From NCBI GenBank assembly GCA_927797885.1, contig OV696605.1, forward strand, positions 2,827,157 through 2,891,156: 64,000 bases of DNA. The letters are read 5' to 3'. A model generated the notes under the pieces. That model had not been told where the DNA came from, made no database searches, and saw only the letters and a list, made by a program, of their open reading frames with translations. Both the position numbers and the translations under genes were made by a program. This DNA is from Gloeomargaritales cyanobacterium VI4D9 (lineage in GTDB: Bacteria; Cyanobacteriota; Cyanobacteriia; Gloeomargaritales; Gloeomargaritaceae). Of the stretch, positions 2,410 through 12,324 are shown piece by piece (position 1 is the first letter of the stretch; each line of letters opens with the position of its first letter).

Positions 2410-3672
2410 ATGATTCACCCATTTGAGATGCCTGTAATGAGTTCCACCATGACCGAGGGGAAGGTGGTGGCGTGGTTAAAGCAGGTGGGAGATTTTGTCA
2501 AGGCTAATGAAAATATTGCGGTGGTGGAATCGGATAAATCGGACATGGAGGCGGAGTGCTTCCATGATGGGTATCTGGCGGCGATTTTAGTGCCTGCGGG
2601 GGGGCAAGCACCGACGGGGCAACCGATTGCCCTGATTGCAGAGACAGTGGAAGAGATGCACCAGGTGCAACAAAATCCCCAGCAGTACCTGGCACAATTG
2701 CAAACCCAACCCCAGACGGCGAAACCTCCCGTTAACCCGGAACCGGAATTGGTAACGGCTACCCCGGCGACCAATGGGCGGGTGATCGCTTCCCCCCGGG
2801 CGAAAAAATTAGCCCAAACCTATCATTTAGATTTAACGCAAATCAAAGGTAGCGGTCCCTACGGGCGGATTGTGGCGGAAGATGTACTGCAAATTGCATC
2901 TCCCCCGTCCCGTCCAACCCCGTCTGCCCCTGCGGTCGTTATTCCTGCCTCCCCACCAGCGACTCCTGCCTCTCCTCCCCCGGTAACGGCGACCGGTTCA
3001 GGCACCATTACCCCCCTCAACACCCTGCAACAGGCGGTGGTACGGAATATGGTGGCGAGCTTGGCGGTGCCGGTTTTTCGGGTGACCTATGCCATCACCA
3101 CCAATGCCCTGGATGCTTTGTACCAACAAATTAAGGGCAAAGGAGTGACGATGACCGCATTACTTGCGAAAGCCATTGCCCTGACATTGACCAAACATCC
3201 CCTGCTCAACAGTCGCTATACCGACCAAGGCATCCAACAACCGGAGGGGATTCATGTGGCGGTGGCGGTGGCGATGGAAGATGGCGGACTGGTGACGCCT
3301 GTGTTGGCAAACCCTCACCAACAGGATATTTACACCCTCTCCCGCTCCTGGCAGGATTTGGTCAAACGTGCCAAGGCGAAGCAATTGCAACCCCAGGAGT
3401 ACAATAGCGGTACATTTACCCTATCTAACCTAGGGATGTTTGGGGTGGAGCAGTTTGATGCGATTTTACCCCCCAATCAGGGGGCGATTTTGGCGGTGGG
3501 GGCGGCGCAACCGGAGGTGATGGCACTTGCGGATGGCTGTATTGCCGTGCGGCGGCGGATGCGGGTCACCCTCACCTGTGACCATCGGGTGATTTATGGT
3601 GCCCAGGCGGCGGCTTTTTTGCAGGACTTAGCCAAACTCATGGAAACGGAAACTCAATCTTTAGTGTTGTGA
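2410..3672 (+). CDS. pdhC: Pyruvate dehydrogenase E2, dihydrolipoamide acetyltransferase
   Basis: E2 core of the pyruvate dehydrogenase complex; it moves acetyl groups from lipoate to CoA. From the ATG at 2410 the protein has 420 residues. It has an N-terminal lipoyl domain (lipoyl lysine K43 in ESDKSDME), a Pro/Ala/Thr-rich linker, a peripheral-subunit-binding domain (ASPRAKKLAQTY...GSGPYGRIVAEDV), a second Pro-rich linker and a catalytic domain ending in the diagnostic DHRVIYG motif. The reading frame is open further upstream (to 2362), but those residues are unlike the family and the lipoyl domain starts at the chosen methionine. No E1 or E3 gene is adjacent, which is common in cyanobacteria. 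The 3' end overlaps the convergent Rieske gene by 19 bp. Confidence 0.93.
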   Translation: MIHPFEMPVMSSTMTEGKVVAWLKQVGDFVKANENIAVVESDKSDMEAECFHDGYLAAILVPAGGQAPTGQPIALIAETVEEMHQVQQNPQQYLAQLQTQPQTAKPPVNPEPELVTATPATNGRVIASPRAKKLAQTYHLDLTQIKGSGPYGRIVAEDVLQIASPPSRPTPSAPAVVIPASPPATPASPPPVTATGSGTITPLNTLQQAVVRNMVASLAVPVFRVTYAITTNALDALYQQIKGKGVTMTALLAKAIALTLTKHPLLNSRYTDQGIQQPEGIHVAVAVAMEDGGLVTPVLANPHQQDIYTLSRSWQDLVKRAKAKQLQPQEYNSGTFTLSNLGMFGVEQFDAILPPNQGAILAVGAAQPEVMALADGCIAVRRRMRVTLTCDHRVIYGAQAAAFLQDLAKLMETETQSLVL

Positions 3673-8451: not shown

Positions 8452-8841
8452 TTATTGATGGCAACCGCTGGGTTCCGGTTCCCACTGGCTGAGTTCAATC
8501 ACATGACCATCCGGGTCTTGGGTAAACAGAGCCGCCCGCCCGGAACTGCTCATTTGCACGGGATAACCAGCGGATGATAACGCCTCTGCCGCCTGGGCTA
8601 AATCCGTTACCGCCAGAGCCAAGTGGGGATTGCGCCCCCATCGGTTCGGGTCAATCAACGGCAGGGGTGGGTGGGGCTGGTGGATCAGATGAATTTGGAT
8701 GCCCTGAATTTCATACCAACAGCCAGGGAACTTCACATCACGGTCTGCTAATTTCAAACCCAAAATTTCCCCATAAAAATGCTGGGAACGTTCCAGGTCA
8801 TTGACCGTGAGTGCCGTGTGGAGATAGCGTACTAATTTCAT
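8452..8841 (-). CDS. VOC-superfamily (glyoxalase/bleomycin-resistance-like) protein
   Basis: The 129-residue protein consists of two beta-alpha-beta-beta-beta halves of the vicinal-oxygen-chelate fold. It begins with LVRYLHTALTVNDLERSQHFYGEILGL split by short loops, and the second half ends with FTQDPDGHVIELSQWE. Candidate metal ligands are His8, a His in the NPHLALAV strand, and the Glu of VIELS. The family includes glyoxalase I, dioxygenases and resistance proteins, so the substrate is open. It lies between ispG and the ATPase operon on the same strand, without tight coupling to either. Confidence 0.85.
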   Translation of the reverse strand: MKLVRYLHTALTVNDLERSQHFYGEILGLKLADRDVKFPGCWYEIQGIQIHLIHQPHPPLPLIDPNRWGRNPHLALAVTDLAQAAEALSSAGYPVQMSSSGRAALFTQDPDGHVIELSQWEPEPSGCHQ

Positions 8842-8886: not shown

Positions 8887-10119
8887 TTATGGCTCTACTT
8901 CTTCCTGAAAATAGGATTCCTGTTCCTCGGTGTTTAATTCTGTGAGGGTGGTTGTCCGGGGCACAAATTCCCTATCCCCTAAATACTGCATATCTAAGGT
9001 TTCGAGTAACCCCCGAATATGGGTGCGAACGGGGTCATTCCCGATGGCATTAATCACCCGGTCAATATCAACTTCCGGTTGCCACCCATAGCTAATACCA
9101 TGAATGGCGGTAATTTCTGATAGTAATTCTTTTAATTGTTGCCGGTTCATTTGTTCTATGAATGGACATATCCGTTCATCCTGGGCATAGGTAAAAAAAG
9201 TACGCATTTTTGCTTCTGAATAACCATTATTACGTTCTTTCGCCAACTCACACATCCGGCTTTGGTCAGGAAGTTGATTGCGCCCCTGGGGATTGTGCCA
9301 CAAATCCAGTAAAGATGTTGCCACCGCCCCCACCGTGTAAATGGGCAAGGTTTGTTCCCCGCCACAATTGAGCAACCAATACAAATGATGGTAGGCTTTC
9401 AGACGACCTACTGTACCTAGACGGGCAATTAATTCAAGTTCATCAATCAAAATCACCCAGCCCCGATACTCACACCAAATCAGAATATCAGCCATCAATT
9501 CAAAGTAGGCTTGGCTGTGTTTTGTCCGCACAAAATTCCCAGGTGAGGGGGGCAAGGAACTTCCCGTCGCTCTTTTGTAAATTTTGCGAATTTCAGAGAT
9601 GGGAATCTGTCCACCCAGTAAGGCATTGTACAACAATTCCTGTTCTTCTGATGAAGTGTGAAAATAGGCTTCTAAAATAATGGCAGGTAAGGGATGGGTA
9701 TATCGGTCAAGATTTTGGATCAGGGTGTGGGGCAAGTCTGCAGAATCTTTTTGGTCTAAAATATGCCGGATGCCCAACAAACGGGAGTGGGGTGTGCGAA
9801 TGGAAGCCGCTAGTTTGCTGTATAAATGATCGAGTCGTTGCCCCGAAAGTTGACGGTTCAAGGTAATGCGACTGACCGCAAATCCCTGGTCAAGTGCTAG
9901 ATGTTCCAAACAGGTCAATTCGTGGGTTTTACCTTGCCCATATTTCCCCCAAATCAGCCGTCCTTGGGGAATCCCCCTACCTTCTGATAACTGTAATAAA
10001 TCCTGGTTGAATTGTTCATGCAACCGATTTCGCATACTTTTCAAATTCAGGGTGGAGGCTCTGGTGGGAATCCCTGCCCGTAAGGATTCAATAATCTGCG
10101 TTGCCAAGGTGGGATTCAT
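8887..10119 (-). CDS. P-loop ATPase of the BrxD/DUF2791 type
   Basis: The 410-residue protein has a Walker A motif at 58-65 (GKYGQGKT) and a Walker B at about 222-228 (VILIDELE), followed by the RLGTVGRLKAYHHLYWLL segment characteristic of the DUF2791 (BrxC/BrxD-like) ATPases found in BREX phage-defence loci. It is third in a three-gene operon: it starts 3 bp after the stop of the preceding ATPase gene, with a GGGAGG ribosome site inside that gene's end. None of the usual BREX genes (pglX, pglZ, brxL, brxC or the helicase partner) is present in the window. The gene is A+T-richer than its neighbours. The family assignment is good; the function here is unknown. Confidence 0.8.
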   Translation of the reverse strand: MNPTLATQIIESLRAGIPTRASTLNLKSMRNRLHEQFNQDLLQLSEGRGIPQGRLIWGKYGQGKTHELTCLEHLALDQGFAVSRITLNRQLSGQRLDHLYSKLAASIRTPHSRLLGIRHILDQKDSADLPHTLIQNLDRYTHPLPAIILEAYFHTSSEEQELLYNALLGGQIPISEIRKIYKRATGSSLPPSPGNFVRTKHSQAYFELMADILIWCEYRGWVILIDELELIARLGTVGRLKAYHHLYWLLNCGGEQTLPIYTVGAVATSLLDLWHNPQGRNQLPDQSRMCELAKERNNGYSEAKMRTFFTYAQDERICPFIEQMNRQQLKELLSEITAIHGISYGWQPEVDIDRVINAIGNDPVRTHIRGLLETLDMQYLGDREFVPRTTTLTELNTEEQESYFQEEVEP

Positions 10120-10122
10120 GAG

Positions 10123-11298
10123 TTAGTTACCTCCCCGCTCACACACGGCATCAATCACCATCTGTTGCAGTTCACTGGTTGAAGAACGATAGTTTTCTGG
10201 GGGCTGAATGTCGCCCAATTCCACATCCCTTAGTAAACTTTTGATCTTGGCAAAAATCCGGCTCCCAAAGGTGTCTCCTTGGGCGGCTAAATGTTTGTCC
10301 ACATCCACTAAATCCGCAAAAGGATTAAATCGTTTGTAATCAGCCAGACCGGTTTGTAAACGAATCCATAGCGCATCGTAGGAACGAAAACTGCGGGGGT
10401 GGTCGGCAATGATTTCCTTTCTACCGCTCAATAAAAAGAAACAGCCACTCAGAATTTCCGTATCATCAATAATCTGCCGGACTAGCTCGCAAATGTCATC
10501 CACCTGCCTCTTGGTAAAATTGTAGCGATTGCCGTGTGCTTTTTCGGCGATGACCTCCAGGTCATCAATGGCAATAATTAAGCCTTTTTTACCAGCGAAT
10601 TGGGATAATAAAATCAGGGAATTTAACCAATCCCTGGCATTCGTTTTATTTAATTTTTCAAACAAATAGAAGGCTTCCCGATCCTGTCGCTCTAAAGGTT
10701 GTCCCATCAGCCATTGACACACCAACTCAATATTGGCGGGGGAATGATTGACCATGCGATGATAAACCACTTGGTAAGCAAAAGCCTTAAAAGAAGAACT
10801 CAAGTCAGTTTTTTTAATAATTTTGCCTGCGGTTTTGCGGATATGTTCATTTGCCAAAGTTGGACTTGGATATTCGTCGTAAATTTGGGGCGCAAATACC
10901 CCCGCTCCATCATAGTCCGTGGTTTCCGAAATCGCCCGGGCAACCCGACAGCATAGACCCCGCACCAAATCCTCATTCACCACTTGTTTGGCAATCTCTT
11001 GATAAAGACTAACCAAATTATTCAAGGGACACTGTCGGGCGGATAAATAAACCGTTTGATAACCTAATTGTTTCCCATCCGCAAGCACAACCCGTAACAG
11101 ATGGGTTTTGCCAGTCCCTTGCCCGCCTACCAATAATTTAACTTTGCTCCCCCCCTGGGCAATATAGTTTTTGAGATAACGGTCATGAATATAATCCAAC
11201 CAAGTATGACGGCTGAGGGTCATTTGTGCCAATAGCTCATCATTTTTGGGAGGCTGTCCCTTACTCAAAAGCCATAAATCATCGGGTTCTATGAGCAT
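10123..11298 (-). CDS. Second P-loop ATPase of the dual-ATPase operon
   Basis: The 391-residue protein has Walker A at 58-65 (GGQGTGKT) and Walker B at 241-246 (IIAIDD, followed by LEVI). A likely sensor segment FFLLSGRKEI lies further on. The spacing of the two motifs is nearly the same as in the downstream DUF2791-type ATPase, so the two may be distant paralogues working as a pair. Residues 155-215 carry a long insertion of charged helices. The gene lies 8 bp after the coiled-coil protein gene and 3 bp before the second ATPase gene. I do not recognise a named family beyond ORC/STAND-like ATPases. Confidence 0.7.
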   Translation of the reverse strand: MLIEPDDLWLLSKGQPPKNDELLAQMTLSRHTWLDYIHDRYLKNYIAQGGSKVKLLVGGQGTGKTHLLRVVLADGKQLGYQTVYLSARQCPLNNLVSLYQEIAKQVVNEDLVRGLCCRVARAISETTDYDGAGVFAPQIYDEYPSPTLANEHIRKTAGKIIKKTDLSSSFKAFAYQVVYHRMVNHSPANIELVCQWLMGQPLERQDREAFYLFEKLNKTNARDWLNSLILLSQFAGKKGLIIAIDDLEVIAEKAHGNRYNFTKRQVDDICELVRQIIDDTEILSGCFFLLSGRKEIIADHPRSFRSYDALWIRLQTGLADYKRFNPFADLVDVDKHLAAQGDTFGSRIFAKIKSLLRDVELGDIQPPENYRSSTSELQQMVIDAVCERGGN

Positions 11299-11306
11299 AA
11301 AAGTTC

Positions 11307-12140
11307 CTAACTAAGTTCCTGATGAAATTCCTGCTGAATCGGTGCCATCTCCTGGGTCACTTTGGGAATTTCCCGAATGCTCATCATGCCAATTGCCTTC
11401 TCCCGCCCCTGTTGATTGACGATAGTGTAATTCTTCTTGGTCTCTTTGTGGGAACTAAAATCAAAATAATATCCTTCGTAGGTAATTTCATACTGTTCGA
11501 GGAGCCGACCGAGATCAAAAATGAAATGGGATTCGGGATATTCCTGCCGGGTTTCTGTTTTCAAGGTCAAGAGTTTGTAAACCTCCTGGAGGGGCACCAG
11601 TGTCCCCCAATTCCCCTGATTCAAATAGGGGTAAACGCTGAGAAGTTCTTTACAAAAACGGGTTTGAGCAAAAGGACGGCTCAGTAAGGCTTTGTATTTC
11701 TCCACCACCCAATCCGCCAAAATTATTGGAGCCAAAGCATAGGTCTGGGAACTTTTTTTCCCCAAGCTCAGTTTCGCTAGGGATTGATTCAGTTTAATGG
11801 ATAGTTTGAACGGGGGAATATCGTAGTTGGGAAAATCACCAGTGCAGGGAATTTTAACCGATGTTAAGGCATTCGTCATCTGTTCTGCATAATCAGCACT
11901 GTGTAGAAATTCCTGCATTTGTTCAGCAAAAGTCTGGCTCACGCCGATAAATTCCTGCCAAGTACCTAAAAATTGCCCTATATCCTGTTCTAAATCTGCA
12001 ATCGTTCGCCGATAATCCCGCATATTCAGTTGGTCACTGGCGGTTTTTAGCCGTTGTACCCCGGTTCTAATTTTTTGACTTAATTTCAATAATTGCTCCA
12101 GTTCCGCCGGGCGAACGATGAAATCCGAGACACCTGACAT
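11307..12140 (-). CDS. Unknown coiled-coil protein, first gene of the dual-ATPase operon
   Basis: The 277-residue protein is not one I recognise. The N-terminal 110 residues are predicted helical and coiled-coil-like (LEQLLKLSQKIRTGVQRLK, ...LEQDIGQFLGTWQEF). The C-terminal part alternates Leu/Tyr-rich strands and helices (SHFIFDLGRLLEQYEITYEG) and might be a winged-helix or scaffold domain (weak inference). No signal peptide or membrane segment is present. It leads the operon with the two ATPases. The 139-bp gap upstream, shared with the divergent doxX-like gene, must hold the promoter and is A+T-rich. Confidence 0.6.
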   Translation of the reverse strand: MSGVSDFIVRPAELEQLLKLSQKIRTGVQRLKTASDQLNMRDYRRTIADLEQDIGQFLGTWQEFIGVSQTFAEQMQEFLHSADYAEQMTNALTSVKIPCTGDFPNYDIPPFKLSIKLNQSLAKLSLGKKSSQTYALAPIILADWVVEKYKALLSRPFAQTRFCKELLSVYPYLNQGNWGTLVPLQEVYKLLTLKTETRQEYPESHFIFDLGRLLEQYEITYEGYYFDFSSHKETKKNYTIVNQQGREKAIGMMSIREIPKVTQEMAPIQQEFHQELS

Positions 12141-12324
12141 ACAAATTCGCTCGCCAAATAGAGCCTTGTTGGTTTACCAATCTTTGACGGCATGATAGCA
12201 AAAAAATAATTTTTGTCAATTACCTGTCCCCACCCCGCACACCCCCAACTCCGTGAAATATGTGTTACATTAATTAACAATGCTTAGCATTGGTTTTAAT
12301 TTTTCTTATCTCGGGAGTTTGGTT

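What the first reader, a model, noticed from the sequence alone, without database searches (positions are those of the whole stretch)
8887..12140. Three-gene operon: coiled-coil protein plus two P-loop ATPases, one BrxD/DUF2791-like, without BREX partners
The gaps are 8 bp and 3 bp, so these genes form one unit. Both ATPases have near-identical Walker A/B spacing (58-65 and about 222-246) and the second matches the DUF2791 type found in phage-defence loci. The expected BREX methylase, PglZ phosphatase, BrxL and helicase are absent, and the third partner is an unrecognised coiled-coil protein. Low G+C and a host region of housekeeping genes suggest an acquired module. A stand-alone ATPase-pair defence or DNA-translocation system is a fair hypothesis.
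Basis: partly seen in the sequence, partly recalled or inferred. Interest (0 to 1): 0.75.

Follow-up and report, generated by a model that had tools for sequence, protein, structure and literature searches.

The report
Undescribed three-gene ATPase defence module
These three genes are one copy of an undescribed gene trio, two paired ATPases plus a new helper protein, found patchily in several bacterial phyla and often beside CRISPR, BREX-type or DNA-helicase genes, so it is probably a reusable anti-phage loading module, though this copy has no such partner next to it and nothing has been tested.

Summary
In detail: a three-gene minus-strand operon, A (277 aa), B (391 aa), C (410 aa), with gaps of 8 and 3 bp, low G+C, and both ATPases matching PF10923 (BrxC_BrxD) at 1e-17 to 1e-18. 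Both lie far below the BrxD equivalog cut-off. A matches no Pfam, NCBIfam or PADLOC family.

The trio recurs as A-B-C in Cyanobacteriota, Bacillota, Coprothermobacterota, Atribacterota and Thermodesulfobacteriota, but patchily (3 of 7 sampled genomes of the window's genus). It is under purifying selection.

Partners vary by clade. A SNF2 helicase is next to it in five Bacillota loci and downstream in a sixth. An XPB-like helicase flanks three. BrxL abuts one. Four lie with cas genes (types I-A, I-B, I-D). A four-gene cousin ends in a BrxHI-like helicase. C is predicted to be an ORC/Cdc6/TnsC-type AAA+ protein and keeps its P-loop wherever checked; B lost it in at least two lineages.

Best reading: a loader module for defence helicases or nucleases, a new variant related to BrxD and Shango ATPases. 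The window's copy has no adjacent partner; its genome carries a separate type 1 BREX operon 1.2 Mb away. Defence is inferred from gene context only.

The parts
11307..12140 (-). Gene A: 277-aa adaptor-like protein with an N-terminal helical hairpin/coiled coil and a folded C-terminal part; member of an undescribed family found 5' of B and C
   Evidence: no family; alignments; no Pfam family in 20 members; AlphaFold2 model, mean pLDDT 87.7
10123..11298 (-). Gene B: 391-aa BrxC/D-like AAA+ ATPase; nucleotide site intact here but lost in two other lineages
   Evidence: PF10923 1.1e-18; BrxD 7.7e-16, SngB 5.7e-8; 58 bits against a cut-off of 350
8887..10119 (-). Gene C: 410-aa BrxC/D-like AAA+ ATPase of predicted ORC/Cdc6/TnsC-type fold; the subunit whose P-loop is kept wherever it was checked
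   Evidence: PF10923 1.2e-17; pLDDT 87.5; archaeal ORC2 Z 16.7, TnsC Z 13-14
9925..9948 (-). Walker A of C (GKYGQGKT, residues 58-65)
   Evidence: sequence
9439..9453 (-). Walker B of C (ILIDE, residues 223-227)
   Evidence: sequence
11104..11127 (-). Walker A of B (GGQGTGKT, residues 58-65)
   Evidence: sequence
10555..10581 (-). Walker B of B (LIIAIDDLE, residues 240-248)
   Evidence: sequence
12192..12219 (-). Promoter-like site TTGACA-16-TATCAT with extended -10, 52 bp before the start of A
   Evidence: (11 of 12 consensus positions; the number of sites in the region as a whole is at chance level)

Best explanation
The three genes form a conserved protein module. C, an ORC/Cdc6/TnsC-type AAA+ ATPase, and its paralogue B assemble with each other and with the adaptor A into an ATP-driven complex on DNA. 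C is the catalytic subunit; B is a partner that can lose its own ATP site. By analogy with ORC/Cdc6, with TnsC, and with the role proposed for BrxD towards BrxHI, the complex recognises or encircles target DNA (probably invading DNA) and recruits, loads or licenses an effector, usually a helicase or nuclease complex. Across genomes the module is paired with different effectors: SNF2/SWIM helicases, XPB-like helicases, BrxHI-like helicases, BrxL, or type I CRISPR-Cas. In the window's cyanobacterium no partner is adjacent, so it must act with a partner encoded elsewhere, or block invader DNA itself. Shown: operon structure, homology of B and C to BrxC/D and to each other, predicted fold of C, recurrence, partner genes, purifying selection. 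Inferred: the complex, DNA binding, loading, anti-phage role.
For: B and C match PF10923 and the PADLOC BrxD and SngB models. The C model is closest to archaeal ORC2 (Z 16.7), Orc1/Cdc6 and TnsC. B and C are homologous (E 1.5e-6). The A-B-C order is kept across phyla. Context: SNF2 helicase divergent from A in 5 Bacillota loci and 0.6 kb downstream of C in a sixth; these SNF2 proteins match ZorD and DpdE among PADLOC models. XPB-like SF2 helicase divergent from A in 3 loci (confirmed by Pfam in L134 and L137; by its first ~250 residues only in L139). BrxL ORF abutting C in G608. Module next to cas genes in 4 Bacillota loci: with I-A (Cas5a, Cas7a, Cas8a, Cas3-like), I-B (Cas5b, Cas7b, Cas3) and I-D (Cas5d, Cas7d, Cas11d, helicase, Cas1) genes, and Cas6. 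Four-gene cousin A'-B'-C'-BrxHI-like helicase in G276 and G015. Patchy distribution: A in 15 of 390 cyanobacterial genomes, 10 of 160 genera; C in 18 of 398 Bacillota genomes. Tree with mixed phyla; cyanobacterial G011/G081 join a Bacillota row with 100/100 support. Omega 0.08-0.16 within the genus. P-loop kept in C in all 18 trio loci inspected motif by motif, lost in B of G011/G081/G591 and of the CRISPR-linked clade. PMC12839542 classes BrxD as ORC-Cdc6 AAA+ and proposes that it loads BrxHI.
Against: No experiment on any member of this family was found. The window's genome has no SNF2 match, no DUF3670 match and only weak matches to a BrxHI-like helicase, and no effector is adjacent. Its neighbours are housekeeping genes shared with relatives. 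Most cyanobacterial copies also lack an adjacent helicase or defence gene. No copy of C was found in the plasmid or phage collections. The four CRISPR-linked copies form one clade and some SNF2-linked copies are close relatives, so the number of independent associations is smaller than the number of loci. The A model has no clear structural relative, and the complex itself was not modelled.
Confidence: 0.55

Rival explanations
1. A non-defence DNA-metabolism module: an ORC/Cdc6-like pair plus adaptor that loads a helicase for repair, recombination or replication restart of the cell's own chromosome.
For: ORC/Cdc6-like fold of C; chromosomal location and shared position in three species of the genus; purifying selection; neighbours in cyanobacteria are mostly housekeeping genes; none found in phage or plasmid collections.
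Against: Very patchy even within a genus; placement within or next to type I CRISPR-Cas genes and against BrxL; closest named relatives BrxD and SngB belong to anti-phage systems; unameliorated base composition.
Confidence: 0.22
2. An accessory of the host's own type 1 BREX system: the trio supplies extra BrxC/D-like ATPases acting in trans on the BREX locus 1.2 Mb away.
For: All three trio-bearing genomes of the genus carry PglZ, PglX and BrxL in a BREX operon; B and C are BrxC/D-like; BrxL abuts C in G608.
Against: Nine of the ten other cyanobacterial trio genomes tested (all but G096) have no PglZ match, so the trio does not need BREX; type 1 BREX already has its own BrxC and does not use BrxD (PMC12839542).
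Confidence: 0.1
3. A target-selection module of TnsC/MuB type, left from or serving a mobile element, with C polymerising on DNA and recruiting an integrase or transposase.
For: TnsC and MuB are among the structural neighbours of C (Z about 12-14); the trio lies at a synteny junction.
Against: No transposase or integrase is conserved next to the trio in any clade; the insertion sequences seen interrupt the cousin operons rather than belong to them. Archaeal ORC fits better than TnsC.
Confidence: 0.06
4. Ordinary inherited remnant: once a full helicase-bearing defence operon, now an effector-less, functionally dying core in this genus.
For: The sister clades in the tree carry helicases and the cyanobacterial clade does not; one cyanobacterial copy (G225) has B and C split by stops or frameshifts.
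Against: Intact reading frames and omega 0.08-0.16 in three species at synonymous divergence above 1; all three genes kept in order in many cyanobacteria.
Confidence: 0.05

Closest known systems
BrxD (type 2 BREX, with BrxHI helicase)
   Same: ORC/Cdc6-type AAA+ ATPase of PF10923; in the cousin operon and in SNF2- or XPB-flanked copies it is genetically paired with a superfamily-2 helicase
   Different: Two ATPases instead of one, a new protein A, no PglX/PglZ/PglW at the locus, scores 53-58 bits against a BrxD cut-off of 350, helicase optional and of changing family
Shango (SngA TerB, SngB ATPase, SngC helicase)
   Same: Small operon built on a PF10923 ATPase; the cousin operon's helicase matches SngC at 5e-82
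   Different: No TerB protein, no SngA match for A, two ATPases, and no helicase gene in the window's copy
ORC/Cdc6 initiators and TnsC-type AAA+ regulators
   Same: Predicted fold of C (Z 16.7 to archaeal ORC2); hetero-oligomer logic in which one paralogue may lose ATPase function
   Different: Bacterial operon, no origin or transposon context, 10-14% identity
Type 1 BREX of the same host genome
   Same: Same broad ATPase family (Pfam BrxC_BrxD); same genome
   Different: 1.2 Mb away; its BrxC is a 1221-aa protein; host BrxA and BrxB show no similarity to A
Type I CRISPR-Cas
   Same: In four Bacillota genomes the module lies with type I cas genes
   Different: The window's copy has no cas gene next to it; the window's A, B and C matched no Cas model in PADLOC

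Membership tests
BrxD equivalog (BREX type 2) | Score above the NCBIfam BrxD cut-off (350 bits) | tested here: not met
   58.4 and 52.8 bits
BrxD equivalog (BREX type 2) | PF10923 domain with Walker A and B | tested here: met
BREX system | PglZ and PglX genes at the locus | tested here: not met
   the only PglZ match in the genome is about 1.2 Mb away (circular distance)
BREX system | BrxHI helicase linked to the ATPase | tested here: not met
   no such gene at the locus; only weak matches in G000, best 1.1e-4
Shango | TerB-domain protein SngA | tested here: not met
   A and A' match no TerB or SngA model
Shango | SngC-type helicase in the operon | tested here: not met
   window: none; cousin operons: met
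ORC/Cdc6-type AAA+ fold | AAA+ core with structural match to ORC/Cdc6 | tested here: met
   (C only; B was not modelled)
ORC/Cdc6-type AAA+ fold | Oligomerisation on DNA and helicase loading | not testable with these tools
   needs biochemistry or a complex model
Anti-phage defence system | Protection against phage | not testable with these tools
Anti-phage defence system | Recurrent linkage to known defence genes | tested here: met
   for relatives in Bacillota and for cousin operons; not for the window copy itself

The most novel reading that the evidence does not exclude
A categorically new, widespread defence core: an ORC-like AAA+ pair plus adaptor that acts as a universal loader, plugged into CRISPR-Cas (three type I subtypes), BrxL, SNF2/SWIM, XPB-like and Ski2-like helicases in different bacteria, and working alone or in trans in cyanobacteria.
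Probability: 0.35. Interest if true: 0.85.

Novelty: new variant of a known kind. Interest (0 to 1): 0.66.

Why it matters
If the reading is right, one small AAA+ module, built like the machinery that loads replicative helicases, serves several unrelated immune systems, including type I CRISPR-Cas. That would give a testable role to BrxC/BrxD/SngB-type ATPases, whose job is unknown (PMC12839542 calls BrxD's role uncharacterised). It would also supply a marker gene family (protein A) for finding further defence loci.

Tried and rejected
Protein A against Pfam, NCBIfam and PADLOC: nothing significant; its relatives against Pfam: nothing. Profile of A against PDB sequences: only coiled-coil chance matches. 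Fold search with the A model: nothing below E 0.5 in Foldseek; VIA-align gives only helical hairpins, a Z of about 8 to actin capping protein for residues 82-156 and weak winged-helix matches (ESCRT-II, ORC-Cdc6-Mcm chain, Z 6.5) for residues 157-258, all within the range of common arrangements. A is not similar to the host's BrxA or BrxB. Plasmids and phages: no C. DUF3670 SNF2 as a general partner: rejected for cyanobacteria, because 318 of 390 genomes have it while the window's genome does not. Lone PF10923 genes of about 442 aa in G022, G013, G053, G031 and G058 are a different, unlinked family. A VOC-family gene next to the trio in several lineages was considered and set aside: in the window's genus it belongs to a conserved block that also occurs without the trio. 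Literature searches for an earlier description of the trio found none in the held library; subscription journals and preprints are not covered.
Full report
WHAT IS THERE. On the minus strand the window holds A (12140..11307, 277 aa), B (11298..10123, 391 aa) and C (10119..8887, 410 aa), with gaps of 8 and 3 bp. A promoter-like site (TTGACA-16-TATCAT, extended -10; 11 of 12) lies 52 bp before A. B and C match Pfam PF10923 (BrxC_BrxD) at 1.1e-18 and 1.2e-17 and PADLOC BrxD and SngB. They score 58 and 53 bits against a BrxD cut-off of 350. A matches nothing significant in Pfam, PADLOC or NCBIfam. In the window copy both ATPases have intact Walker A and B motifs. G+C is 44-46% and GC3 45-48%, against 52-60% and 57-71% for six flanking genes; the same low values hold in both sister species.

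HOST. The window lies in a complete 3.16-Mb cyanobacterial chromosome.

SPREAD IN THE GENUS. Of seven sampled genomes of the genus, G000, G003 and G004 have the trio and G001, G002, G005 (83% complete) and G006 do not. In all three carriers it sits between a block with the NnrU-like, CtpA, IspG and VOC genes and a block with the response regulator and CbiC-like genes; the DoxX-like gene next to A is seen in G000 and G003 but was not matched in G004. In trio-less relatives these two blocks lie on different contigs with other neighbours, so the trio marks a rearrangement junction. This fits acquisition, or loss with rearrangement. dN/dS is 0.08-0.10 for B and C and 0.16 for A against G003, and 0.09-0.15 against G004, so all three genes are maintained; A changes fastest.

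SPREAD BEYOND. Profiles of A find it in 15 of 390 cyanobacterial genomes, 10 of 160 genera (two of these are the cousin operons described below). A scan of GTDB contigs with C gave 24 loci in Cyanobacteriota, Bacillota (including Sporomusa acidovorans), Coprothermobacterota, Atribacterota and Desulfobulbus, at about 39-56% identity outside Cyanobacteriota. C occurs in 18 of 398 Bacillota genomes. A six-frame census of the fetched loci finds A, B and C in that order on one strand wherever the contig covers them. A tree of 40 C proteins places the window in a cyanobacterial clade nested among Bacillota and other phyla; the G011 and G081 copies instead join a Bacillota copy (100/100), so cyanobacteria probably received the module at least twice (some long branches). 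C was not found in plasmid or phage collections.

PARTNERS. (i) A divergent SNF2 helicase next to A in five Bacillota loci (L071, L077, L079, L080, L085), with a SWIM zinc finger in the same protein (L077) or in the adjacent gene (L071); among PADLOC models these SNF2 proteins match DpdE and ZorD best. A sixth locus, L142, has SNF2 downstream of C. (ii) An XPB-like SF2 helicase divergent from A in L134, L137 and, seen only in part, L139. (iii) A BrxL gene abutting C in G608 (L141; the ORFs meet at position 3200). (iv) Cas genes in four Bacillota genomes: G722 with Cas5a, Cas7a, Cas8a and a Cas3-type helicase on the same strand; G573 (contig 27) directly after Cas3, Cas5b and Cas7b; G429 between Cas11d/Cas7d/Cas5d/helicase and Cas1; G764 followed by Cas6. 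Three different type I subtypes carry it. (v) A distant cousin in cyanobacteria, A'-B'-C'-helicase: complete in G276, with an insertion sequence between A' and B' in G015, and broken in G251; the helicase matches BrxHI (9e-99) and SngC (5e-82). In the window's own clade no helicase is adjacent, and the genome has no SNF2 match and only weak BrxHI-like matches.

BREX IN THE SAME GENOME. G000 has BrxA, a BrxB-like gene in the expected place, BrxC (1221 aa), PglX, PglZ and BrxL at about 892.8-908.4 kb; G003 and G004 carry the PglX-PglZ-BrxL part too. The distance to the trio is about 1.2 Mb around the circle. Nine of ten other cyanobacterial trio genomes tested have no PglZ, so the trio does not depend on BREX.

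STRUCTURE AND LOGIC. The C model (pLDDT 87.5) is an AAA+ protein closest to archaeal ORC2 (Z 16.7, rmsd 5.7 over 276 residues), other Orc1/Cdc6 proteins (Z 15-16) and TnsC (Z 13-14). B and C are homologous. In the 18 trio loci inspected motif by motif, C keeps its P-loop in all, while B has lost it in G011, G081 and G591 and in the CRISPR-linked clade. That pattern, one catalytic and one expendable ATP site, resembles hetero-oligomeric initiators such as ORC (inference). The A model (pLDDT 87.7) has a helical hairpin (12-79) and an alpha/beta remainder with only weak, unconvincing structural matches, some to winged-helix domains.

MECHANISM. I propose that B, C and A form an ATP-dependent complex that marks or encircles target DNA and loads or licenses an effector, which varies between genomes. 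This extends the suggestion in PMC12839542 that BrxD loads BrxHI. Shown: genes, homology, predicted fold of C, recurrence, context, selection. Inferred: complex, DNA action, loading, defence. For the window's species the effector is unknown.

KNOWN OR NEW. By the tests made, it is not BREX (no PglX or PglZ at the locus; below the BrxD cut-off) and not Shango (no TerB protein; no helicase). It works like, and is related to, the ATPase part of both. No description of the trio was found in the searched literature, with the limit that many journals are not covered. I therefore call it a new variant of a known kind; the stronger reading, a general loader shared by several immune systems, is not excluded.

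LIMITS. Context counts include related loci, so independent events are fewer than loci. No complex was modelled and no function tested.

Noticed in passing
L144 6797-18894 and L146 1260-6397 (host chromosome C1, about 892.8-908.4 kb): Type 1 BREX operon (BrxA, BrxB-like gene, BrxC, PglX, PglZ, BrxL) in the host genome, interleaved with small genes that look like PIN/antitoxin pairs; the PglX-PglZ-BrxL part is also in G003 and G004.
   Followed up: partly
L133 8742-18860, L136 4709-12111, L138 7341-16742, L135 8225-11662: The trio lies with type I-A, I-B and I-D cas genes (and Cas6 in L135); in L133 and L138 small, probably membrane proteins (86-122 aa) flank it.
   Followed up: partly
L141 1155-5759: A trio whose C gene abuts a BrxL gene with no other BREX gene seen on the 7-kb contig and no PglZ in the genome.
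   Followed up: partly
L019 10271-13246: A CHAT-protease/TPR protein (991 aa) directly downstream of the trio in G012.
   Followed up: no
L057 6656-9851 (same as L083): Trio copy in G225 with B and C each split by a stop or frameshift: a decaying copy or assembly error.
   Followed up: no
L061 4326-10451 and L021 9969-11135: Cousin operons interrupted by what look like insertion sequences (inside C' in G251, between A' and B' in G015).
   Followed up: no
window 8452-8841; L055 10717-11178; L079 9568-9933: A VOC/glyoxalase-family gene adjoins the trio in three unrelated contexts (after C, before A, after C); possibly coincidence.
   Followed up: partly
L022 9200-10528; L023 9411-10742; L024 8557-9903; L025 9105-10433; L026 7656-8984: A lone PF10923 ATPase of about 442-448 aa, unlinked to A or B, in several cyanobacterial genomes with no defence-gene neighbours noticed.
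   Followed up: no
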